A stretch of 64,000 nucleotides of DNA from Mesostigma viride (Eukaryota; Streptophyta; Mesostigmatophyceae; Mesostigmatales; Mesostigmataceae). The stretch is taken from NCBI GenBank assembly GCA_009746045.1, contig RPFO01001021.1, forward strand, positions 255,391 through 319,390. Direction: 5' to 3'. The notes beneath the pieces are model-generated. The model made no database searches, was not told the DNA's origin, and saw only the letters and a list, made by a program, of their open reading frames with translations. The first letter of the stretch is position 1. Each line of letters opens with the position of its first letter. The translations under genes were made by a program, and so were the position numbers. Positions 15,123 to 56,754 of this stretch are shown here, piece by piece.

Positions 15123-17151
15123 GCTGCCATTAAAATTAAAATTTAATTATAACATGCCTCCGTTGGGAGATCATGTAGCACATATTCCTTGATGGGTGGT
15201 GGAAAGGAGAGAGCCGCGTAATCTAACTATCCTAACGCTAATCTACCTAGTCTAGAAAAATCCTAACTGCCCTACTCGTCAAAATGCCTCCTCCTCTTGG
15301 GGGGAGGGGGCTTGCCCACAGGGTCGGGCATGTGAGCCTTGACAATCTTCTGCCACCGCGTCTTGTTCTGCATGGCAGTCCAAAGAAGGGAGAGAGAGTG
15401 GATGCGGTATTCAAACTGGGCTGGGACCAGTAGGTCATCCAGCAACATCTGTACGTTGTTCGTGGCATGTTTCCCTACCCTTTTGGGAAATGCCCTTGGG
15501 GCCAGGCCAGGTCAGAATGTGCCGCCCTGGCTGGCCAAGCCGCTGGGGGCCGGCCAGACCAAGGGCGGTGGCGACCTAGCTAGCTGGTGCGAGCAAGGTG
15601 TCCTACAAATGCTATCCTACGCTGTCTAATCTCGTCCGAAATACGAGGCATGCCCTGATACAAAGACTCTGATGACGGGCGCTTGGAAAACCCTACGTTC
15701 AGGACCTGTCGGAGCATCATGTAAACTGTGCCGTCTCGCCTAGCTGCCTAGTGTGGGTGTGAGTGTCCACGCCTCGGCGCCATACGTGAGCACCGTGAGG
15801 AAGAGGACCTTAATTGAAGAGCATGCGCTTGCGGTGGTCGCCCAGGCCCTTGGAGCGCCAATAGGTGTTGAGGGAACGAAGCCTAGCCCAGCCCAGGCCG
15901 ATGCGGGTGTCCACATCGTCGGCGGTGTCAGGGAGCCAGCTCCCTAACAGTTTGAAGCGATCGCGGAACGGGAACGTCGTCCCATCGAGCAGGCGCGGCA
16001 GCGGCGGTGTACTGGAGGCCTCAATCACCATCGCCTCAGTTTTGACACTAAAATCTCCAACCCCACCGCCCTCGCCTCCAGGCCCAGACAGTCCAGCCAG
16101 GTCTGAGTGTGCTCGGGGCGCGCGATGAGGGTGCATGGTGTCATCCGCATAAATCAGGTCGGCCAGGCGGTAACCAGGTCTAACCCCGCCGTGCTCTTTC
16201 TGGTTAAGGATGTCCAAGCCCGGCTCGAACCCCTTAAGAGCAGTAAAGCGCGCACGTGCCCGGCGCATGACGTGATCCACGACAATAATGAACAGGTATG
16301 GGGACAGGACACAACCTTGCCACACCCCGTGGTGAAGGGGGAATGGTGGGGTGGTGCCTTCCGCAGTCTGCACTTCTGCCTGTGAGCCCTCATATGCATA
16401 CAGTCGACGAATGGCGCAGCAATAAACGCCGGTGGCACCCCGGCGATCCAGAGCTAGGATGGCCCAAAGAGCCTCCCAGAGGACCGTGTCAAAGGCCTTG
16501 ATATAGTCAACAAAAATATGAAGACCAGCGGCAAACTGTCAGGGCAAAGGCGACGCACCTCCTCCATCAACCGGCGCGCGACAAACACAGCCATGACAGT
16601 GCATGTTACGACCACGACGGAAACCCATCTGAGACTCACCCAGGTGTGGGTCCAGCGCGGCGCAGAGCCTGTGCAGCATCATGCGCATGAAGACCTTCAG
16701 CGCGGCGCTCTTGAGGCAGACACCCCGGCCGGTAGTCACCGGAGTCAGCAGCAAAGCCCTTCTTGTACAGCATGACGCGGATGGCCGTCTGCCACTCAGC
16801 AGGCGGAGGCTCGTCAGAGAGCAGGACACGGTTGCAGAACGCCAGCAGAAGATCCCTAACCGCCGGGTCAGGAGTCTTCAGCAGCTCAGCCGAAAGGTGG
16901 TCGGCACCGACCGCCGCGTCGTACCGCAGGCGAGCAAGGGCGCCGTCCAGTTCCTTCAAGGGGTGGACGACGTCGTTGGTGGCAAGGCAGCCCTCCTGCA
17001 AGGCGGGGACTTGGTAGTCCGCGGCCGAGGAGGGGGGCCGGCGGCGGCGGCGGCGGGGGTCCGGCGACCCCGAGACGGGCGGCCGTCTCGGGGTGAAGCG
17101 GCGGGGGGGGCCGGCGCGAGCCCCACCTGTCAAGGAAACATTGTGGTCCAT
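15123..17151 (-). mobile_element. 5'-truncated, decayed non-LTR retrotransposon with reverse transcriptase
   Basis: Minus-strand frames give an ordered reverse-transcriptase domain split by several frameshifts. It begins with 'GADHLSAELLK' and 'AEWQTAIRVMLYKKG' (about 16.9-16.75 kb), then 'QMGFRRGRN' and 'RRLMEEVRRLCP' (about 16.6-16.5 kb). 'GVWQGCVLSPYLF' and the catalytic 'YADD' lie at about 16.3-16.1 kb. C-terminal to this come 'VLTYGAEAWT', 'SLYQGMPRISDE', 'FVGHLARTS' and a terminal 'RWQKIVKAHMPDPVGK' segment that stops near 15.28 kb. The 3' end carries ctcccaacggag and an AT-rich tail near 15120-15150. No endonuclease domain is visible, so the 5' part is lost. The clade is uncertain; the tail of short repeats rather than poly-A would suit an RTE-like element. 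Confidence 0.85.
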
Positions 17152-17314: not shown

Positions 17315-17488
17315 ATTAATTAATTAATTAATTAACTAAACACGTGCTCCCGTTGGGGAGTCACGGAGCACTGAAGTGCTTTTAATCCCTGTGTGTGCAC
17401 TACAGGAGAAAGGGCAGAGACCCCCAGTCTCCTTCATGCCAAAGGCATGCCACAGCTACATTCGGGCGCGCTAGCTAAAAGGACAGGC
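17315..17488 (-). mobile_element. short retroposon, inverted copy
   Basis: This is the reverse-complement partner of the element at 17828-18000 and is about 95% alike by eye. Its 3' end faces left and carries the hairpin block gtgctcccgttggggagtca (shown as plus strand) and a run of ttaa repeats. The left flank (17293-17314) matches the edge of the MITE at 18.1-18.2 kb, so the tail seems to abut an older element. Confidence 0.8.
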
Positions 17489-17827: not shown

Positions 17828-18000
17828 TGGAAGCCTGTCCTTTTAGCTAGCCGCGCCCGATTGCAGCTGTGGCATGCCTTTGGCATGAAGGAGACTGGGG
17901 GTCTCTGCCCTTTCTCCTGTAGTGCACACACAGGGATTAAAAGCACTTCGGTGCTCCGTGACTCCCCAACGGGAGCACGAGTTTAATTAATTAATTAATT
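17828..18000 (+). mobile_element. 173-bp retroposon with an 11-bp target-site duplication
   Basis: The element is bounded by the direct repeat ctgggggtcct at 17817-17827 and 18001-18011. It ends in gactccccaacgggagcac, whose core ctccc-caac-gggag folds into a hairpin, followed by (TTAA)n. The inverted copy at 17315-17488 begins at nearly the same 5' base. This suggests a defined short element (SINE-like) rather than random truncation. I see no tRNA-type promoter boxes. A 3' piece of the family is at 48116-48189. Confidence 0.85.
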
Positions 18001-18672: not shown

Positions 18673-18932
18673 GGCCCGGTTTGTGGGTCAACCCTGGATG
18701 TGCGCCCTGAAACCCCGCAGGCTCTGCAAGAGGCCTTTACATAAATTCTCCCAAACCGGGACGAGTTCCAAGCCTATCAAAGCCTAGCAAACGAGTTCCA
18801 AGCCTATCTGTGGCCTCTGGACTGTGGGGCAGCCTTACTGCATCCGATATGCTTTTGCTATGTCGAAGCTGTATTGCAGCCATGTGCACAAAGGTTTACA
18901 AGTAACTGCTCTTGGCCCCCCGCAGTGCTCCA

Positions 18933-21900
18933 TTAATTTATAACCATTTCCGCAAATGGCTCGCGCAGGACATCGCCACTTGATTCTTTCTTCTGAATGT
19001 TTCGCCACTTATCCTGCACCCAAGGAGAGCCCACAAAAATTTCAAGTCTTTTAGCAACAGTGCCACACCAGGTAATTTACTATATGTATAATCATGCAAC
19101 ACAGAAAGCACATCCACTAAGATACAGGATTGTTTGTTTCATAAAAGATCTTGGCTGAACAACAAATGGTCTGTGTTGCGGTATAAAGTACCTTACGATT
19201 CCAGAGAAGTTAGCATGCTGATCAATGTGGTCGGCAATGTAACCTAGTATACGAACACCAATGGGGGCCAGCTTGCAGCAATGTGCTTGCATACCAAGTA
19301 ATTGGGCGTTACACCTAGTAAATGTATGGCCCTCCGCTTACTAGGCCAGCAAGGAGAAGGATGCTGTGACTAATGAATCTCACTATATTCTACTTCCCCC
19401 TACCCGAGTAACACTGGTACCCGTGGCACTTGCACCTGAAGCTTCCTGCAGTGTTCTTTCCCCATAATCTCCTCTTGAAGCTCATAATACACCTCCTTCC
19501 CCCTTCCATGGTGTGCGACTCTCTCAAACCGTGCCCAGAGCATCCATGCAATTTGTCAAAGTTAATGCTCGCCAAAACACATAGCCGACTGTCCGCTGCC
19601 ATGTTCATGCACCATGCACCGCCCCACTGCAGCAACAACTGAAATGGCTGGCAGGTTATTCAACCACCCGTCACCTGGCATGCATGCCTCTTCTGGCTCC
19701 TTGTGCCTTTCTTCCCAAGCTCGTCATCGCAACTACGTTCTTCCTGACCCACATTCCCCACCCCCCACGACGACATCAAACAATTACCTTTAGATCCTGT
19801 GGCGTCCGCTCCTGCCAAACATGCGGATACCTCTTCAGAATCGCCTTCCAATTCCCCGTGCCAAACTGGGCCACACCTGCCTTCAGGGCCGCAGCCTCAG
19901 CATCAGTAAAGGACTTGCTCGGCCGCCGCAGTGCCACCGGGCTGTCTGCCAAGGTACCCAACCCTTGAAGGCTAGGGGGAGGGCAATAAGAAGAGGCTCC
20001 GCTAGCAGCAGCCACGGCTTTCCGTTCCTTCTCCTGCCGTTCCTTTTCCCTCCGATCCTTCTCCCGCTCTTCTTTTGCCTGCCGCTCCTCCTCCTTCCGC
20101 TCCTTCTCTTGCCTTTTCAGCTCCTTCTGCCGTTCCTGCTCCTTCCGTTCCATCTCCTTCTGCCGTTCCTTCTCCTTCCTCTTCATCTCCTTCTGCAATG
20201 CCATCTCCTTCCTCTCCTTCTCCTTCCGTTTCAGCTCCTTCTGCCGTTCCTGCTCCTTCCGTTTCAGCTCCTTCTGCCGTTCCTGCTCCTTCCGTTCCAT
20301 CTCCTTCTGCCGTTCCTTCTCCTTCAAATGCGCCGCCTCCTTCTCGCGGATTTTTGGCTCATGCTTCAAGAAGTGGTTCAGCAGCTCGTCTTTGCCCCAC
20401 AGGTTCAGCGACTTGCGGTTCTTGACAAAGTCCTTCGCACACTGCGAGAAGTGTGAGGTCGTTACCACGAAGCCTTCGTTGGGTGTCAACTTCCCCAGGC
20501 TAGCACCGTCAGCCACTGACGTCTCCGAGGGAGCTTGCTCCGTTGTGCCCTCGTGCTTGGCGGGGGTCCGTGCGGGCTTGTCCTCGGCCGGTGGCTTGTA
20601 GTTGTCCATGGCGCCGTAAAAGGCGCGCACCTGTTCCACGCCCACGCAGGAAACCCACTGTTGCCAGGGGGTCGCAGGGGCAATAAATACAAGTCAGCAG
20701 CAGTCTAGCAGTGTCAGCATTGACGCCTTTGTTTCGCTGTTCCCAAGAAGGCAGCTGGGCAAAAAGTGGGAAGGTGGTGAAGAGGGGTCAGGAAATAAAT
20801 TAGGCTTTGGAGCTCTTGGGCTTCTGGAGTAACTTATTGGATTGTAACTTTTTTTTAGCTGATATATTGGTTTTGTGCTGCCACTGCTAGATATACCTTC
20901 CAACTGGAAACAGCCAAACGAAAGTCGAAGTGCTCAGCAAAGTTGTATGCTAGGATGTTCGTTATTAGAATGTCACTAGTGTGACCCGCTGGCTTCGCCC
21001 AGCCAAAAAAAGTCACTTTTGGGCGGTAGAGAGACCTTTTGGGCGGTAGAGGGACTGCCCGCTGCCCGCTGCCCGCTGCCCGCTGCCCGCTGCCCGCCGC
21101 CCGCTGCCCGGAGTGCCCGCTGCCCGCAGCCCGCGGCCAGCTTTTGTCGTATTGGCGTTCAGTATTTTTCCGTAGCTTTTTGTAAGTAAGAAATTCGTTT
21201 CAGTAGATTTATGTAAGTAACGCTCTCCTTCGCTGCGCTCCGGAGGCTTTGCTGCGCTCCGGAGGCTTCGCTGCGCTCCGGAGGCTTCGCTGCGCTCCGG
21301 AGGCTTCGCTGCGCTCCGAAGGCTTCGCTGAGCTCAGCAGGCCGCTGAAGCAACTGCTCGCTTCGCGCGGGTTGGTGGTCAGTAGGTCCGCTTCTTTCGT
21401 ATTGGCGGTCAGTCCTCTTTCCCCTTTTTGGATTGGTGGGGAAGTCGCGATGCCCTGAATAGTGGCGGATTACCTTACATTGCTAAATTAATAACTAGGA
21501 TGATACAAATAAGAGTGTAGGAGTTATGAGTACTGCAAGCTTACCACCACCAGGTGGCATGTCCTAATCTGTCATTGTGTCTCAAGCAGTGCCCTTGGAT
21601 CCACATCCCAGGCAGAACGATGAATGCCCACTAGATTGCCTGCCCGGTACTTGTCTACTATAACACTGAGAGAGCCCCCAGGGAATGAAGTGTAGCACAG
21701 CCATACGCTAGCGCACGCTTGGTTTTGCCCATGCCGATTCACCTTGCCTTTCCTTCCTAGCCAACGGTGACAAACGTAATGACCAAAGCAGATTTCATCG
21801 TTTACAGCCCACCTTCCCGCTTGTGGAACCCAGCCTCAAGCCTCAAGGCGATCACATTCGTAGTGCCAACCTCCCTCCTCCCTTGCAAGTCTCACGCAAG

Positions 21901-22436
21901 AAGAACAGAGTGGTCAGCAGCCAGGCACCCGCCCGCAACAACGTGACGCTCCAATTACTCAGCATCATGGCCGTGCTTGTAATAAATGGCCAACAGACCA
22001 CGGCTAGGGGTGACAGATAGGAAAGGGGATAGGTAAGGGAATGGGTAAGGAAACAAGGCAAGTGCCTGCTTACCTGCTTGCACTGCACGAGGGAAAATAT
22101 GTTGCCGCCGCTTCTTGTCAGGATGATGTCGCAGCCGCCATCTCGCGTGCGCTTCGTGACCGTCGTGTGATACCCCAGGCACTCAAACAGCCACGAGCAA
22201 TACAGCTCAAAATCCTCAGGCGTACAATCTACACAGTCTCGGTAGAGGCGCTGTGCCCTTGCCTGGGCCTCCCTTTCCCTCTGGAACGGGGAAACCTCCT
22301 TCTCTGGTTCCTGGGCGGGCTCTAGGTCCTTGACAGGTGTCGTCATTTCCTCGCCCATTTGAGACTCGCCCGTGTGAGACTGGTCTGCTTGGGACTGTCT
22401 AGTCTCCCTCGTCCTCCGGGCCGCCACGCGCTCCAT
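18933..22436 (-). CDS. Mrr-type nuclease fused to coiled coil and telobox MYB domain, 3 exons
   Basis: Exons 22436-22074, 20657-19788 and 19013-18933 are joined by phase-0 GT-AG introns and give 437 residues. Residues about 68-220 read as an Mrr-type restriction-endonuclease fold: 'CTPEDFELYCSWLFECLGY', then 'DGGCDI' with D103 as the likely metal-binding acid, 'QCK' (118-120) as the QxK motif, 'CVGVEQVRAFYGAM' and 'GFVVTTSHFSQCAKDF'. Exon 1 ends directly after the QCK block and exon 2 supplies the rest of the fold. Residues about 225-340 are a Lys/Glu/Arg/Gln coiled coil built from short repeats. Residues about 365-420 form one MYB/SANT repeat ending 'RTPQDLK' (exon 2) plus 'DKWRNI' (exon 3), which rebuilds the telobox signature LKDKWRN. 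In TRF and plant TRB proteins this helix reads telomeric DNA. The motif residues look intact. Upstream exons are possible because the chosen ATG is only the first in this frame. Nuclease activity and telomere binding are inferences. Confidence 0.8.
21056..21118. repeat. 7-bp tandem repeat in the nuclease-MYB intron 1
   Basis: About nine copies of gcccgct, some altered, lie in the 1.4 kb first intron of the nuclease-MYB gene. Related gcggtagagagac and gcggtagagggac copies lie just before it. Confidence 0.85.
21233..21335. repeat. 19-bp tandem repeat in the nuclease-MYB intron 1
   Basis: About five copies of gctccggaggcttcgctgc occur in a row with a period of exactly 19 bp. The array lies in the first intron of the nuclease-MYB gene, and its open frames are repeat products. 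Confidence 0.9.
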
Positions 22437-22747: not shown

Positions 22748-23404
22748 TCATGGTGCAGGCCCAACTGTGGGTGCATTGAAACAAGAAGTAGCAACAGCGG
22801 ATGCAAGAAGACTGCCCCGTCGCCAAAAGGCCACCGATATAGGCTTAGAACTCACGGAAAGGCGCCGGTTTGGGAGAGAATAAAGGCCTCTTCCGGAGCC
22901 TGAGGGTTTCTTAGGGCACGCCCAGGGTCCACCCACAGCCCCCAGGGCATGCGTAGACTTCACAATTACTCATGAAGCGATCCCCCAAAAGGCGATACCC
23001 AATGCTTAACCAAATAAGTAGAAATAGCGCACCATACTGATTTCATACAAACAAACATTTCCTTGACAGGTCGCAAAATTGACAACGTAGTCGAACTTTA
23101 CAGTGCACGTGCGATCGGACGTTGCCAGGGTAAGAAACATAAGGTGCCCGAGTGGGAGTCCATTAGACGTACCTTCGCTATAGAAATCCGGTGGAATAAG
23201 TTCCAGGTATCCATGGAACACGAGATAAAGTACTTTCACCAAGAAAGAGGCCACAATCACCCCAAACAATACGGTCGTAACGTCCACGTTCGTGGTTGTC
23301 AAAATACGAAGAATCTGGCTGAGCAGCTTTCCTGTAAAGTCTGCTAAGGCGTGTAATAGCGCCTGTATGTCAAATCCGAGATGTAATGAGGCAAAACCCT
23401 CCAT
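22748..23404 (-). CDS. possible small membrane protein, 2 exons
   Basis: Exon 23404-23173 ends in the strong donor gtacgt at phase 1. A pyrimidine-poor but in-phase acceptor opens exon 22899-22748, which ends in TGA. The product would be 127 residues. The first exon encodes 'TTVLFGVIVASFLVKVLYLVF', one clear hydrophobic helix at about residues 43-66, preceded by an amphipathic stretch. The second exon is Ser/Arg-rich. No family is recognised. It lies head to head with the SPR coiled-coil gene, about 800 bp apart. Exon 1 looks reasonable, but exon 2 is less certain. Confidence 0.35.
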
Positions 23405-49524: not shown

Positions 49525-49650
49525 TAACGCCCCACCCCGTGTGCACTGGCATGAGTGAACAATCCGCGCGAGGTCGAGCTGCTGCTCTGCCGGACATTAC
49601 CTCGTTTTAAGAGGTCGGGTTTGTAGTTTTAATTAATTCCATCCTTCATC

Positions 49651-51812
49651 ATGGGATCTAAAGGGGAGGCTCCCGCCATCGGCATTGATCTTGGCACGAC
49701 GTACAGCTGCGTCGGCGTTTTCGACGCTGCATCCGACCGTGTCGAAATCATCGCCAACGATCAAGGTAACCGGACCACCCCTTCTTTCGTGGCATTTACC
49801 GACACCGAGCGCCTGGTCGGTGATGCTGCCAAGAACCAGGTCGCCATGAACCCTTCCAACACCGTTTTCGACGCTAAGCGTCTTATCGGCCGTAAGTTTA
49901 ACGATGCGTCGGTTCAGTCCGACATGAAGCATTTCTCGTTCAAGGTCAAGCCTGGTCCCGCCGACAAGCCCATGATCGAGGTCGACTTCCGTGGCGAGCG
50001 CAAGTCCTTCTCCGCTGAGGAGATCAGCAGTATGGTTTTGACGAGCATGAAGTCGACTGCCGAGGCTTTCCTCGGCAAGACTGTCAAGAACGCCGTCGTC
50101 ACTGTGCCAGGTACGTCGGCACTTGTTTTCTCCATGGTTCTTTTGCATTCTCTGCTTTTTCTGCGTTTCCTGCAGTCGCCTGTCCTTAACCTTCTCAAAG
50201 TTTTCAAGACTGACATTCGATGCTTTGTTTTGCACTGCACACATTTTTTCCTTTCTTTTTTCCGGCTGCAGCTTACTTCAACGACTCCCAACGTCAAGCG
50301 ACGAAGGATGCGGGCACCATTGCCGGTTTGAATGTGCTTCGTATCATCAACGAGCCCACTGCTGCCGCCATTGCCTACGGTTTGGACAAGAAGAACATGA
50401 ACAAGAAGGAGCAAAACGTGCTTATTTTTGACCTGGGCGGTGGAACCTTCGATGTCTCCCTCCTGTCCATCGAGGAGGGTGTGTTCGAGGTCAAGGCCAC
50501 CGCCGGTGATACCCACCTTGGTGGTGAGGACTTCGACAACCGCATGGTTGCCCACTTTGTGCAGGAGATCAAGCGCAAGCACAAGAAGGACATCAGTGAC
50601 AACGCGCGCGCCCTGCGCCGCCTGCGCACGGCCTGCGAGCGCGCCAAGCGCACGCTGTCCTCTGCCGCGCAGACCACGGTCGAGCTGGACTCTCTCTTTG
50701 ACGGCACCGACTTCTACTCAACCATCACCCGTGCTCGCTTCGAGGAGCTCAACGCGGACCTCTTCCGCAAGTGCATGGACCCCGTTGAGCAGGTGCTGCG
50801 CGACTCCAAGATGGACAAGGGCCACATCCACGAGGTCGTGCTGGTCGGCGGGTCGACCCGTATCCCCAAGGTGCAGCAGCTGCTTCAGGACTTCTTCAAC
50901 GGCAAGGAGCTGAACAAGAGCATCAACCCTGATGAGGCCGTCGCGTATGGCGCCGCGGTGCAGGCCGCCATTCTCTCCGGTGTCACCTCGAGCAAGGTGC
51001 AGGACCTGCTGCTGCTCGATGTCAGCCCCCTCAGCTTGGGTCTGGAGACAGCTGGTGGTGTGATGACCATCCTCATCCCTCGCAACACGACTGTGCCCAC
51101 CAAGAAGGAGCAGGTATTCTCCACGTATGCGGATAACCAGCCTGGTGTGCTGATCCAGGTTTACGAGGGCGAGCGCAAGATGACGCGCGACAACCACCTG
51201 CTGGGCAAGTTCGAGCTGTCTGGCATTCCGCCCGCGCCACGTGGTGTGCCCCAGATCACCGTCACCTTCGATGTCGATGCCAACGGCATTCTGAACGTGT
51301 CGGCTGAGGACAAGGCGTCTGGCAACAAGAACCGCATCACCATCACCAACGACAAGGGCCGCCTGTCCAAGGAGGAGATTGAGCGCATGGTCAAGGATGC
51401 AGAGCAGTACAAGGCGCAGGATGAGGAGCAGATGAAGAAGGTGGAGGCCAAGAACCAGCTTGAGAGCTACGCGTTCAACATGCGCAACAGCCTCAACGAC
51501 GGCGGCCTCGGCGGCAAGCTGTCACCTGAGGACAAGAAGAAGGTCGAGGAGGCGGTCGACGGGGCCATTAAGTGGCTGGACGGCAACCAGATGGCTGAGG
51601 CTGAGGAGTTCGAGGACAAGAAGAAGGAGCTTGAGGAGGTCTGCAACCCGATCATCGCCAAGGCTTACGCTGCTGGCGGTGGTGGGGATGGCGAGGGCAT
51701 GCCAGGTGGTTTCCCAGGTGGTATGCCAGGTGGCATGCCCGGCGGGTTCCCTGGCGGCGCTGGCGGTGCCAAGCCGTCTGGCTCGGGGCCCAAGATCGAG
51801 GAGGTGGATTAA
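49651..51812 (+). CDS. HSP70: cytosolic HSP70 chaperone, 2 exons
   Basis: HSP70 binds unfolded polypeptides in an ATP-driven cycle with J-domain and nucleotide-exchange partners. Exons 49651-50110 and 50272-51812 are joined by a 161 bp phase-1 GT-AG intron inside '[13 protein letters not shown]', and give 666 residues. All three family signatures are present: '[15 protein letters not shown]' (about 10-24), '[14 protein letters not shown]' (about 213-226) and '[17 protein letters not shown]' (about 350-366). The substrate-binding domain and lid follow. The tail is rich in GGMPG-type repeats and ends in EEVD, the docking site for TPR co-chaperones that marks the cytosolic/nuclear form. The length is slightly above the usual 645-655 because of the Gly-rich tail. 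Codon use is strongly C-biased at third positions, as for a highly expressed gene. The intron gives an alternative read-through frame that breaks the ATPase domain and is not coding. Confidence 0.98.
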
Positions 51813-53261: not shown

Positions 53262-56200
53262 CTACTCAACAGGTCTCTTCTTGGCCAAGTTCGTGAGCCG
53301 TTTCTCGACGTCTGTCGGAATGGTCAAGATGGCCTGGCGATTGTTAGCTGGGTTGACAACAATGGTGTGTTCGAACCCCGCGTCCATGCACAGGTAGCAA
53401 TTGACCAAGTTTGGCTGTTCAGCTTGCGCATCGGCGTCCATTTTGAACATCGTCGCCATACCCGGAAATCTGTCCCAGTAGCGCACCCCCACCACCCATT
53501 GTCCCTTACGGAACAACTCCCTATCGACCTTGCCGTTTCTGTCGGCCACTCGCCTCACGAAAGTAGCGGCCACCTGATAAGGCTCCTGCAAGACTTCCGC
53601 TAGCCAATATGGATGATCTGGATCGTGGGACTCATCACCAGAGTAGGACTCGACGGCAAAAATGTCTCGCAGCTTCAGTCTCCTTCCCATCATCGTCCTC
53701 TCTGCCTGTAGTCTGTTCAGTCGCGTCCCTGCGTGCCCCCCTTGTCCGTTTGGGTTCCTTTGCACTGGCTCCCCCAGTTTGTGGAGCTTCATCCGAGCAC
53801 CTCCCACATTCCAGCCGTCCATGTCGGTCCACTCCTTTCGACAATCCCACCACCTTTCCTCGGCGCACGCACCGCCACAATAGCAGGAATACTGGCGCAG
53901 CATTAAGCGCGTCACATTCGACTTGTCCATGCGCCACCAGTGCGCCTTCTTCACTCCTTTGATTTCGCCGCGCCCTGGGCTGTAAGGAAGCACCTGCGCG
54001 TCGAAGACAAGATTTGCACAAGGGAAAGTTGAAGTTACGAGACCATCGAGCTAGTTGTGTTTTATTAAGCACTCCTGATCGCCAGGACTCCAAGAACGCC
54101 CTAGAAACGACGGCCGGCGTAACTATTCCCTGAACGAGGACTGTACACTTAATTACCTCGGGGAACTCGAAGAAGTTACGCCTGGTCGTTGTGGTCCCGC
54201 CCACCGCCCCCGACGCCAGATTCTCCACCAACTGGGCGGCCGTCTGTTTGTCCTGGTTCTCTTCCCTGATGTGCCACCTCCTCAACATGCACTTCACAGT
54301 CCCACCAGCTCCATCCACCTCCCCCTTTCCGTGCTGCTCCCCAAAGTAATTCCACTCAAATGACTCCAGGTGCGGATCCTCCGTCAGCAGCCGGGCCACT
54401 TCCGCGATCACATTCCTTGACTTGAACTGCATGGAGCAATTGTCCGACCACCCAATGAAGCGCTTCACCTCTACCCCTTCTGACCGTAGTGTCGCCAGGA
54501 TTTTGAGGATAGCAAAACGGAGGGCCCGCCCGTCCCTTTTCATTCCGCCCTGTCCGATGAAGTGAAACTCCCTTCTCACGACCTTTCCCGACGCTGGATC
54601 CAAGTAGCGCACGATCCAGGGCATAAGGACGAATGTGACTGGATGCCAATACTGTGCTTGGAGATTGTGATAGGTGTAAGACTGGTAGTTCTCGGCGTAA
54701 TCTGTGTGGCATACAAGGTCCCCCACCCGCATCCTTGAGAGACATTCCTTGGAGGCGTCCGCTTGCCACCACGCGTTGAAGCAATGCTGGATGAAGTCCG
54801 GCCACTTGTCCACAATTGCCTCCTTTAGCTCCGTTGGTGTGGACTTGACGTCGACTTGCGTCAATCGCTGCCCACCAGCCTTTGCGATCTCGTCACAGTC
54901 GTCCTGCATATGCGCAGTGTGCACATACAGAAAAGACATCAACTTCGACCCACCAATGACCTGTAGAAAGAAAAAAGACAGGACCTCAGGAAAAATTGAA
55001 AAAGAAACGCCTTGGGGCGCAACCACTCCACTAAAAATTACCTCTGGCCCAAGAACTTCAGGAAACATTGCAAAAGAAACGCCTTGGGGCGCAACCACTC
55101 CACTAAAAATTACCTCTGGCCCAAGAACCGCACCCGGCGGCACATCCTGCATCTCGTATCTGGTCCATGAAATCAGGTGGTTGGAAGCCTCCTCCCGTTC
55201 GCATAACATGAAGTTCCGAATTCCACACTTGGGAGCCAGGCAAGTGCCCAACACACAAGCCTTACGCCGGATCGAGCAAACCCCCAACTCCTCGCCCAGG
55301 TCATGATCGGGCACCCCTTCCTCGTCGTCCAGCACCCTCCCATGCATGGGCAGATCCTCAAGTTCGCCCTGAAAAGGCTGAACCTGCGGCCGCGACGACC
55401 CCACAGACGACCTCGAACCTCCCCCCTCCCTCATCCCCTCCACCTCACAAGTAAACTTGTTCACCCACTCTGTCGTGTGAGTGGCTTTGAAAATGGAACA
55501 TGTGGGCACGGACGACCCCACGTCGAGCTGGCTACCATGATCGCACGCGTGGCATTCAGGTCCGCACTCGCATCTGGCATGAAAAGTTGCACGAAATTTG
55601 GCCAACCCCCCAACCATGGACTGCATGGTAGTGTGGTGCTGGCATGCGCACAAGTTCCGCATTTTCCACCGCCCCTTGACGCATGCGGGCATATGCTTGC
55701 AAAAAGTAGTGTATCCCACATGAACTGTGCTCTTCTGATTCGTGCGTAGCATTGACATCCCTGCCTCCGTCTCCAAAATCACCTGATTTCCCCCCCTCAC
55801 ACCCTCCTCTCCCTCCCCCCCCCCCCTCCCTACTGTCCATCCGCCGCGGTGGCTTCAACTCCGGATGGCGGGAAATGAACACTTCGTAAATCTTCGACTT
55901 GGAGACAGTATAGTAGCGCGCACCCTCCGAAAACGCTAGTGTATGTTTGTAATCCTTTCTGGTCCATTCACAATGAACATCCTTCATGTTCGGAGACGCC
56001 CGCGTCAAGTTATCATCCCTCCAGCACGCTTGTATCAGGGCAATGACTTCCGTCGGAAGCTCGTCTTTCCTCCTCCTCCTCTCTGGCGCACTCATCAAAA
56101 GGTCGTCCTCCCCTTCTTCCATTCCATCCCTGTGACCCCGAACAGTTGCGACAAAGCGCCTGTCAATCCCGAACGCGCGCTCCACAATCCTGTCCGGGAC

Positions 56201-56611
56201 GCCCTCCATTGCCTTCGTAACAAGTCCACACAAGGCCCACCTAAGCCCACGATCCTTCTCAGATGTTCCCAAGTCGCCAAAAGCCTTCTTGATGTTATCC
56301 CGAAGAGATTCCGCCCAATTTTCAGGAAGCCCGCCGTCACAGTTCTTCCTCTTCTTAATGCCGTTGCTCTCCGCCACCATGGCATTTAGTCTTGAAGCTG
56401 CGCAAGACAGAACCTCCGCGCTCATCTCTGGCGTCCTGTGGTTGTTTGCTTTCACGCGTTCCGCCATGATAGGAAAGATGTCATTGGCAATTTTGTACCC
56501 CTTGTTCTCGATGTACTTGTCGCTCCAGAGACCGCGAAGTGCAGGCTCCCGGTCGTCATTGGACAAGGGACGCGAACCGTCGGAAACGGCCCCCCGCCCC
56601 GATCGCGCCAT
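53262..56611 (-). CDS. DDE-transposase-like protein, 3 exons, one indel
   Basis: Exons: 56611-55114, 54960-54157, 53993-53262, with phase-0 GT-AG introns. The N-terminal part is basic and helical. A Cys/His cluster follows ('HARCECGPECHACDHG'). The centre has conserved acidic blocks of an RNase-H-like transposase core: 'HTDYAENY' (D about 586), 'WSDNC' (D about 672) and 'FGEQHGKGEVDGAGG' (E about 707). The C-terminal exon has another Cys cluster ('CYCGGAC', 'WWDC') and a 'YWLAEVL' segment. The family assignment is by motif pattern only. The frame changes once at a 12-G run (55815-55826); removing one base gives 1010 residues. That points to a sequencing or assembly error or to recent decay. 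The start could lie further 5', as an open frame reaches 56746. It is probably a mobile-element gene; no terminal inverted repeats were found. Confidence 0.6.
54980..55125 (-). repeat. 81-bp duplication of an exon end and donor in the transposase-like gene
   Basis: Two copies, differing at a few bases, hold the exon end 'VLGPE', the donor gtaattttta and the following intron sequence (gtggagtggttgcgcccc). The model uses the upstream donor (exon ends 55114). The unit length is divisible by three, so reading through stays open. Confidence 0.85.
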
Positions 56612-56754
56612 CAGACTTTGGTCAGACGGCAGCTGATTTTTTTCGCCTCTTAATCCCGCGGCACCGAAAGCCCTGAGGATGAGTAATGATAAATAATCAC
56701 CATTAAAGACACGACGAAAACGATGGGCATCAAACAAGAACGACAAGCGTCATT

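What the first reader, a model, noticed from the sequence alone, without database searches (positions are those of the whole stretch)
18933..22436. Mrr-type restriction-nuclease fold fused to a telobox MYB domain
Seen: three phase-consistent exons join 'DGGCDI...QCK...VGVEQVRAFYGAM...GFVVTTSHFSQCAKDF' to a charged coiled coil and a MYB repeat closing with LKDKWRN. Known: D plus QxK are the catalytic landmarks of Mrr-family PD-(D/E)xK enzymes, and LKDKWRN is the telobox of TRF and plant TRB telomere-binding proteins. Inference: a nuclease-fold protein that could be directed to telomeric repeats, perhaps a captured bacterial enzyme reused for telomere processing, element control or genome defence. 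I know of no described protein with this order of domains.
Basis: partly seen in the sequence, partly recalled or inferred. Interest (0 to 1): 0.88.

Follow-up and report, generated by a model that had tools for sequence, protein, structure and literature searches.

The report
Algal nuclease fused to telobox MYB
A green alga related to land plants carries one gene that joins a bacterial-type DNA-cutting domain to a DNA-binding domain of the kind found in telomere-binding proteins; the joining looks real and unusual, but what it binds or cuts has not been tested here.

Summary
On the minus strand of a Mesostigma viride contig, three phase-0 exons (22436-22074, 20657-19788, 19013-18933) encode 437 residues, identical over full length to a public EukProt/JGI model, Mv22736-RA.1. 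The N-terminal half is a Mrr_cat nuclease domain (78 bits, cut-off 21) keeping E77, D103, Q118 and K120, invariant in 7 of 7 aligned sequences. The C-terminus is a single MYB (36.8 bits, cut-off 24.4) with exact LKDKWRN, closest among solved structures to TRF2 (E 2.1e-8). A 119-residue charged arm lies between. Exon 2 holds both the second half of the nuclease and most of the MYB, so a false join is unlikely. One Mrr_cat place was found in the 440-Mb genome; no second protein of this architecture turned up, but those searches reach only near relatives. Telomere targeting is not shown: the MYB has Gln where TRF2 has Val and lacks the plant Myb-extension. My reading: a sequence-tethered, probably active endonuclease of unknown target; new variant of a known kind.

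The parts
22074..22436 (-). exon 1 (residues 1-121): acidic/polar N-terminus, then first half of the Mrr_cat domain with E77, DGGCD (D99, D103), Q118-C-K120
   Evidence: splice, ATG; Mrr_cat best stretch 71-142; catalytic columns invariant
20658..22073 (-). intron 1, 1416 nt, GT-AG, phase 0, directly after QCKQ
19788..20657 (-). exon 2 (residues 122-411): second half of Mrr_cat, charged arm, linker, and MYB up to LK of the telobox
20370..20657 (-). second half of the Mrr_cat domain (residues 122-217), with a polar insert of about 40 residues
   Evidence: alignment A2
20472..20603 (-). insert (about residues 140-183) absent from the 6 bacterial relatives aligned
20013..20369 (-). charged arm, residues 218-336 (50 K+R, 37 D+E of 119), on a 33-nt (11-residue) tandem repeat
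   Evidence: (family D1)
19788..19922 (-). MYB domain, part in exon 2 (residues 367-411, ending in LK of LKDKWRN)
19014..19787 (-). intron 2, 774 nt, GT-AG, phase 0, splits the telobox LK|DKWRN
18933..19013 (-). exon 3 (residues 412-437 and TAA): DKWRN and a short tail, no Myb-extension
18682..18846 (.). copy of a dispersed repeat flanking the gene (not part of it)
22798..22937 (.). inverted second copy of that dispersed repeat (not part of the gene)

Best explanation
A single-copy nuclear gene of Mesostigma viride encodes a chimeric DNA enzyme. A bacterial-type Mrr PD-(D/E)xK nuclease domain with intact catalytic residues sits at the N-terminus and a eukaryotic single MYB with a telobox at the C-terminus, joined by a long charged arm, probably helical. 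Most likely the MYB docks on a double-stranded site (telomeric or interstitial TTTAGGG-like telo-box DNA is the first candidate), the arm holds the nuclease at a distance, and the nuclease nicks or cuts DNA near that site under some control such as dimerisation, DNA state or expression. SHOWN here: exons, domains, catalytic residues, a single Mrr_cat place. INFERRED: that it is active, what the MYB recognises, and that the arm is a rigid spacer. The confidence given is for this tethered-nuclease mechanism; the architecture itself I hold at about 0.93.
For: 437-aa model with clean splice sites and an identical public model. Mrr_cat 78 bits and MYB 36.8 bits, both over curated cut-offs. E77, D103, Q118 and K120 invariant in 7 of 7 aligned sequences. 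Profile matches in the PDB to hypothetical protein AF1548 (E 5.1e-5) and LlaBIII (E 0.0019) (that both hold nuclease folds of this kind is recalled). PADLOC matches to PDC-S02, ZorD ('Mrr-like nuclease') and mREase_IV models. TRF2, TBP1 and TRF1 lead the MYB matches in the PDB. Exon 2 alone spans both domains in one open frame. In bacteria Mrr-cat domains are coupled to separate DNA-reading domains: Mrr-N and SRA-like (PMC3874153, passages), wH and RAMA (PMC11037411, passages).
Against: No activity, binding, expression or structure data could be obtained (structure prediction switched off). The domain also matches NA-iREase1, a family named inactive (35.0 bits, cut-off 27); but 5 of 6 bacterial relatives match it at E<=0.001 too, 3 of them over its cut-off, while keeping the same catalytic residues. 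The recognition helix departs from TRF2. The whole-protein Pfam scan does not report the MYB. A codon-usage test trained on HSP70 was uninformative: the annotated frame was the best of three sense frames in each exon, but antisense frames scored higher in exons 2 and 3 and in one frame of exon 1.
Confidence: 0.45

Rival explanations
1. Genome defence: the protein restricts incoming or mobile DNA (viral, transposon), like a type IV restriction enzyme, with the MYB giving a self/non-self or chromatin cue.
For: Mrr relatives found are annotated as restriction enzymes or defence proteins. M. viride has widespread 5mC and long-term LTR element activity (PMC6947507, passages), and E. coli Mrr acts on methylated DNA (PMC3874153, passages).
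Against: No modification-reading domain was found. Because its own genome carries 5mC, a methyl-dependent nuclease would need strong restraint. A MYB is a sequence reader, not known to me as a methyl reader.
Confidence: 0.2
2. Telomere or telo-box nuclease: it processes chromosome ends or interstitial telomeric repeats.
For: Exact LKDKWRN; TRF2, TBP1 and TRF1 are the top structural matches. TRB proteins were reported undetected in Mesostigmatophyceae (PMC12616469, section 11 read), so another telobox protein might stand in.
Against: Gln for Val in the recognition helix; no Myb-extension; a sextuple TRFL knockout in Arabidopsis showed no change in telomere length (PMC4700174, abstract and passages), so a telobox does not prove a telomere role. 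The telomere-repeat search of this genome did not complete, so the telomere motif of this alga was not checked here.
Confidence: 0.15
3. Catalytically idle: the nuclease fold is only a DNA-binding or scaffold module of a transcription or chromatin factor.
For: Match to NA-iREase1; an insert of about 40 residues inside the fold.
Against: All four active-site residues remain, and bacterial relatives that keep them match NA-iREase1 too.
Confidence: 0.15
4. Gene-model artefact: two neighbouring genes wrongly joined, or bacterial contamination.
For: No RNA reads could be inspected here.
Against: Exon 2 carries both domains in one open frame; two GT-AG introns; 685-kb contig with an HSP70 gene in the window; identical public model, by inference from the axenic strain CCAC 1140 (PMC7027972, passages).
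Confidence: 0.04

Closest known systems
Bacterial Mrr_cat restriction endonucleases (e.g. plasmid proteins WP_056800036.1 and WP_216980373.1)
   Same: Mrr_cat domain, E, DGGxD, QxK and the following V-x-V...R core; 25-35% identity to the algal domain in A2
   Different: No MYB and no charged arm; 3 of 6 carry a Top1 zinc ribbon, and some have a membrane-like N-terminus by eye
Type IV modification-dependent enzymes: EcoKMrr (Mrr-N + Mrr-cat), MspJI (SRA-like + Mrr-cat)
   Same: Mrr-cat coupled to a separate DNA-reading domain (PMC3874153, passages)
TRF1/TRF2 and plant TRFL (TBP1, TRP1)
   Same: C-terminal single MYB with telobox (PMC4924339, passages)
   Different: No TRFH domain reported by Pfam, no Myb-extension, nuclease domain at the N-terminus, Gln for Val in the recognition helix
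Plant TRB/SMH proteins
   Same: Telobox MYB and a coiled-coil-like stretch
   Different: TRBs have an N-terminal MYB and an H1/5-like domain, neither present here; TRBs reported undetected in Mesostigmatophyceae

Membership tests
Mrr_cat (PF04471) | HMM score over the curated cut-off | tested here: met
   75.1 bits whole protein, 78.0 bits residues 1-217, cut-off 21
Mrr_cat (PF04471) | catalytic E ... D ... QxK | tested here: met
   E77, D103, Q118, K120 invariant in 7 of 7
Mrr_cat (PF04471) | complete domain including the C-terminal strand and helix | tested here: met
   aligned through residue 217 in A2, with an insert of about 40 residues; Pfam's best stretch itself ends at 142, with a second stretch
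Mrr_cat (PF04471) | fold and endonuclease activity | not testable with these tools
   structure prediction switched off; no bench data
Type IV modification-dependent restriction enzyme | modification-reading domain (Mrr-N, SRA, wH, McrB-N and the like) | tested here: not met
   no such Pfam family or 11
Telobox MYB proteins | single MYB over the Pfam cut-off | tested here: met
   PF00249 36.8 bits, cut-off 24.4, on the C-terminal 95 residues; not reported when the whole protein is scanned
Telobox MYB proteins | LKDKWRN-type motif in the third helix | tested here: met
   residues 410-416, exact; motif as given in PMC10887745 (passages)
Telobox MYB proteins | Val at the start of the recognition helix (its base contact is recalled, from no call) | tested here: not met
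   Gln aligned with the Val of TRF2
TRFL family 1 | Myb-extension after the MYB | tested here: not met
   only about 19 residues follow the MYB
TRB/SMH | N-terminal MYB plus H1/5-like domain | tested here: not met
   MYB is C-terminal; no linker-histone family
TRF1/TRF2 | TRFH dimerisation domain | tested here: not met
   no such family
Telomere-binding protein | binds telomeric DNA | not testable with these tools
   needs gel shift or ChIP
Transposable element gene | many copies with element-specific ends | tested here: not met
   one Mrr_cat place; the other 8 of 11 protein matches lie within query residues 208-402 at 30-43% identity, 7 of 8 with in-frame stops (96 of 1840 candidates scored); flanking repeats are dispersed ones

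The most novel reading that the evidence does not exclude
An early-branching streptophyte fused a bacterial restriction-type nuclease to its telobox MYB and uses it as a telomere- or telo-box-directed endonuclease, for trimming or resolving telomeric DNA or for destroying DNA that carries such repeats, in a lineage where TRB proteins have not been detected.
Probability: 0.12. Interest if true: 0.85.

Novelty: new variant of a known kind. Interest (0 to 1): 0.5.

Why it matters
[quoted passage not shown] It would show how restriction-type enzymes can be domesticated in eukaryotes without destroying the host genome. If telobox binding holds, it would add an enzyme to the telobox proteins, among which the plant telomere binder was still called unknown in 2016 (PMC4700174, abstract in the listing). 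The direct tests (cleavage, gel shift, ChIP) are simple.

Tried and rejected
Transposon hypothesis: the gene lies between two inverted copies (18682-18846, 22798-22937) of a repeat (local score 69 against a maximum of 29 in 100 shuffles). The left copy recurs across the genome: 46 matches listed, itself included, from 40 scored of 278 candidates. The arms are therefore a dispersed repeat, not ends specific to this gene; rejected.

Paralogues: the protein search of the genome scored 96 of 1840 candidates and gave 11 matches; 3 are the gene's own exons, 8 lie within query residues 208-402 (the charged arm, some running into the start of the MYB) at 30-43% identity. The one of these that I opened (L016) is a run of alternating R and E with no MYB by eye; the other 7 were not opened. 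MYB piece: 2 matches, both the gene (3 candidates). Split-telobox pattern: 2 hits, the gene and one other (L031); the reversed-pattern control also gave 2, and by eye L031's frames show no MYB upstream, so taken as chance.

Origin of the nuclease: no phage match; nothing in the viral contigs with the algal domain, and 0 of 15 stretches confirmed with the Aeromonas domain; genome contigs with the algal domain confirmed 0 of 18 stretches, and with the Pseudomonas domain 2 of 19, of which L019 was used and L020 (29%, lacking DGGxD) was dropped before alignment A3. No tree was built: about 110 aligned residues at 25-35% identity would not place the donor. Of 10 plasmid records, 6 were fetched.

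Third protein search with the Mrr piece: 27 candidates, none at E<=10. NCBIfam gave only matches far below cut-off. PHROGs gave a restriction-endonuclease family at E 1.1e-8 and two of unknown function. PDB search with the algal nuclease region alone gave chance-like matches; the profile did better. Codon-usage test uninformative.

Literature: the listings (14 of 14 papers listed; 17 of 17; 12 of 73; 12 of 26,406; none of those listed holds the family accession) show no title or abstract start on a Mrr-MYB fusion or a Mrr protein of Mesostigma. Only an open-licence library was searched, so this is weak evidence of absence.

Full report
Where it is. The window lies in an unnamed assembly at G000:C2200:255391-319390 (439,911,974 bases, 2243 contigs), on a contig of 685,115 bases. 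The protein listing names the identical protein jgi/Mesvir1 Mv22736-RA.1, so the organism is Mesostigma viride, a streptophyte alga (lineage). The assembly is very probably that of strain NIES-296: its size is near the published 441,847,188 bp, and contig C1646 is 2,558,729 bases long, exactly the published scaffold N50 (PMC6947507, passages; contig length). The public model's MAKER-style name fits the genome of axenic strain CCAC 1140, annotated with MAKER and transcript evidence (PMC7027972, passages); that link is my inference. If right, the 437-residue protein is identical in two separately sequenced strains, one axenic.

The gene. Minus strand; exons 22436-22074, 20657-19788 and 19013-18933; GT-AG introns of 1416 and 774 nt, all phase 0. 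GC at third codon positions is 0.72 and 0.75 in exons 1 and 2, against overall intron GC of 0.53 and 0.48; exon 3 is short with GC3 of 0.44. A codon-usage comparison trained on the HSP70 gene of the window ranked the annotated frame first among sense frames but not over antisense frames, so I do not lean on it. The first intron follows QCKQ, the second splits the telobox as LK|DKWRN. Since exon 2 runs open from the Mrr core (VGVEQVRAFYGAM, GFVVTTSHFSQCAKDF) through the arm to the MYB, the fusion does not rest on a predicted splice between unrelated pieces.

The nuclease half. Pfam Mrr_cat scores 75.1 bits on the whole protein and 78.0 on residues 1-217, cut-off 21. The same region matches NA-iREase1, a family named inactive, at 35.0 bits (cut-off 27). 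Five of the 6 bacterial relatives also match that family at E<=0.001, three over its cut-off (L004, L006, L007) and two below it (L005, L009), while keeping the catalytic residues; the name is thus weak evidence of inactivity here. E77, D103, Q118 and K120 are invariant in 7 of 7 sequences. Relatives were found in 10 plasmid records (Cupriavidus 5, and one each of Aeromonas, Proteus, Providencia, Pseudomonas, Xanthomonas), none in phages, at E<=1e-5. A profile of 7 sequences, the algal one included, matches the solved structures of hypothetical protein AF1548 (E 5.1e-5) and LlaBIII (E 0.0019). PADLOC models matched include PDC-S02 (best E 7.4e-11), ZorD (3.2e-8) and mREase_IV (7e-7). The algal domain carries about 40 extra residues between helix and strand.

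The arm. Residues 218-336 hold 50 K+R and 37 D+E and are encoded by a 33-nt tandem repeat (family D1). With few hydrophobic positions I read it as a single charged helix used as a spacer rather than a classical coiled coil; this is inference, untested.

The MYB half. Residues 343-437 alone give Myb_DNA-binding 36.8 bits and Myb_DNA-bind_6 29.3 bits, both over cut-off, and among solved structures TRF2 (best E 2.1e-8), TBP1 (5.8e-6) and TRF1 (9e-6). LKDKWRN is exact. In the alignment, TRF2 reads RTAVMIKDRWR where this protein reads RTPQDLKDKWR: Gln stands for Val; that this Val touches a base in TRF-DNA structures is recalled. The D and R of the helix remain. About 19 residues follow the domain, so the Myb-extension of plant TRFL family 1 is absent; [quoted passage not shown] TRB binds telomeric repeats through its MYB (same passages), and TRF1/2 have no such extension (recalled), so its absence does not exclude telomere binding.

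How common. One Mrr_cat place in the genome (1 match, 2 candidates, both scored). Homology searches of 5.77 billion proteins, limited to lengths 0.55-1.75 times the query and to shared exact words, returned only the protein itself: 1 of 110 candidates with the Mrr region and 1 of 159 with the MYB region, and none of 27 with the Mrr piece. They did not return the bacterial relatives that tblastn found on plasmids, nor any other MYB protein, so absence of other fusions is provisional. TRBs were not detected in Mesostigmatophyceae by PMC12616469 (section 11 read), although the three plant telobox families are described as ancient (PMC4700174, passages). Whether M. viride has other telobox genes stays open: the MYB-family and unsplit-telobox searches did not complete.

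Mechanism. In bacteria Mrr-cat is paired with a DNA-reading domain (Mrr-N or SRA-like, PMC3874153, passages; wH, RAMA, PMC11037411, passages). By that logic this protein is a nuclease aimed by a MYB. It works like such fusions; it is a member of Mrr_cat and of the telobox MYBs by domain, but not of type IV restriction enzymes (no modification reader found), TRF, TRFL family 1 or TRB (defining parts missing). Target, activity and biological role are inference.

Verdict. New variant of a known kind; interest 0.5.

Noticed in passing
window 18682-18846 and 22798-22937: Two inverted copies of a dispersed repeat of about 160 nt flank the gene; 40 of 278 candidate places were scored genome-wide and all 40, this one included, matched.
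   Followed up: yes
window 15810-16538 (-): Open frame with a reverse transcriptase match (RVT_1, 35 bits); a retroelement fragment, type not determined.
   Followed up: no
window 17322-17470 and 17852-18000: 149-nt inverted repeat, 97% complementary, 381 nt between the arms, with AT-rich outer ends; my guess is a MITE.
   Followed up: no
window 49633-51812 (+): HSP70 gene (HSP70 646 bits on 50214-51812; an upstream frame at 49633-50331 looks like its first exon).
   Followed up: partly
window 53635-56749 (-): Two large open frames without a Pfam match at E<=0.01; by eye they look like a transposase, untested.
   Followed up: no
EukProt Mv22736-RA.1 / whole-protein Pfam scan: The MYB is missed when the whole protein is scanned, probably because of the composition of the charged arm; other fusions with such arms may be hidden in the same way.
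   Followed up: partly
G000 contig C1646: Its length equals the published scaffold N50 of M. viride NIES-296, which identifies the unnamed assembly.
   Followed up: yes
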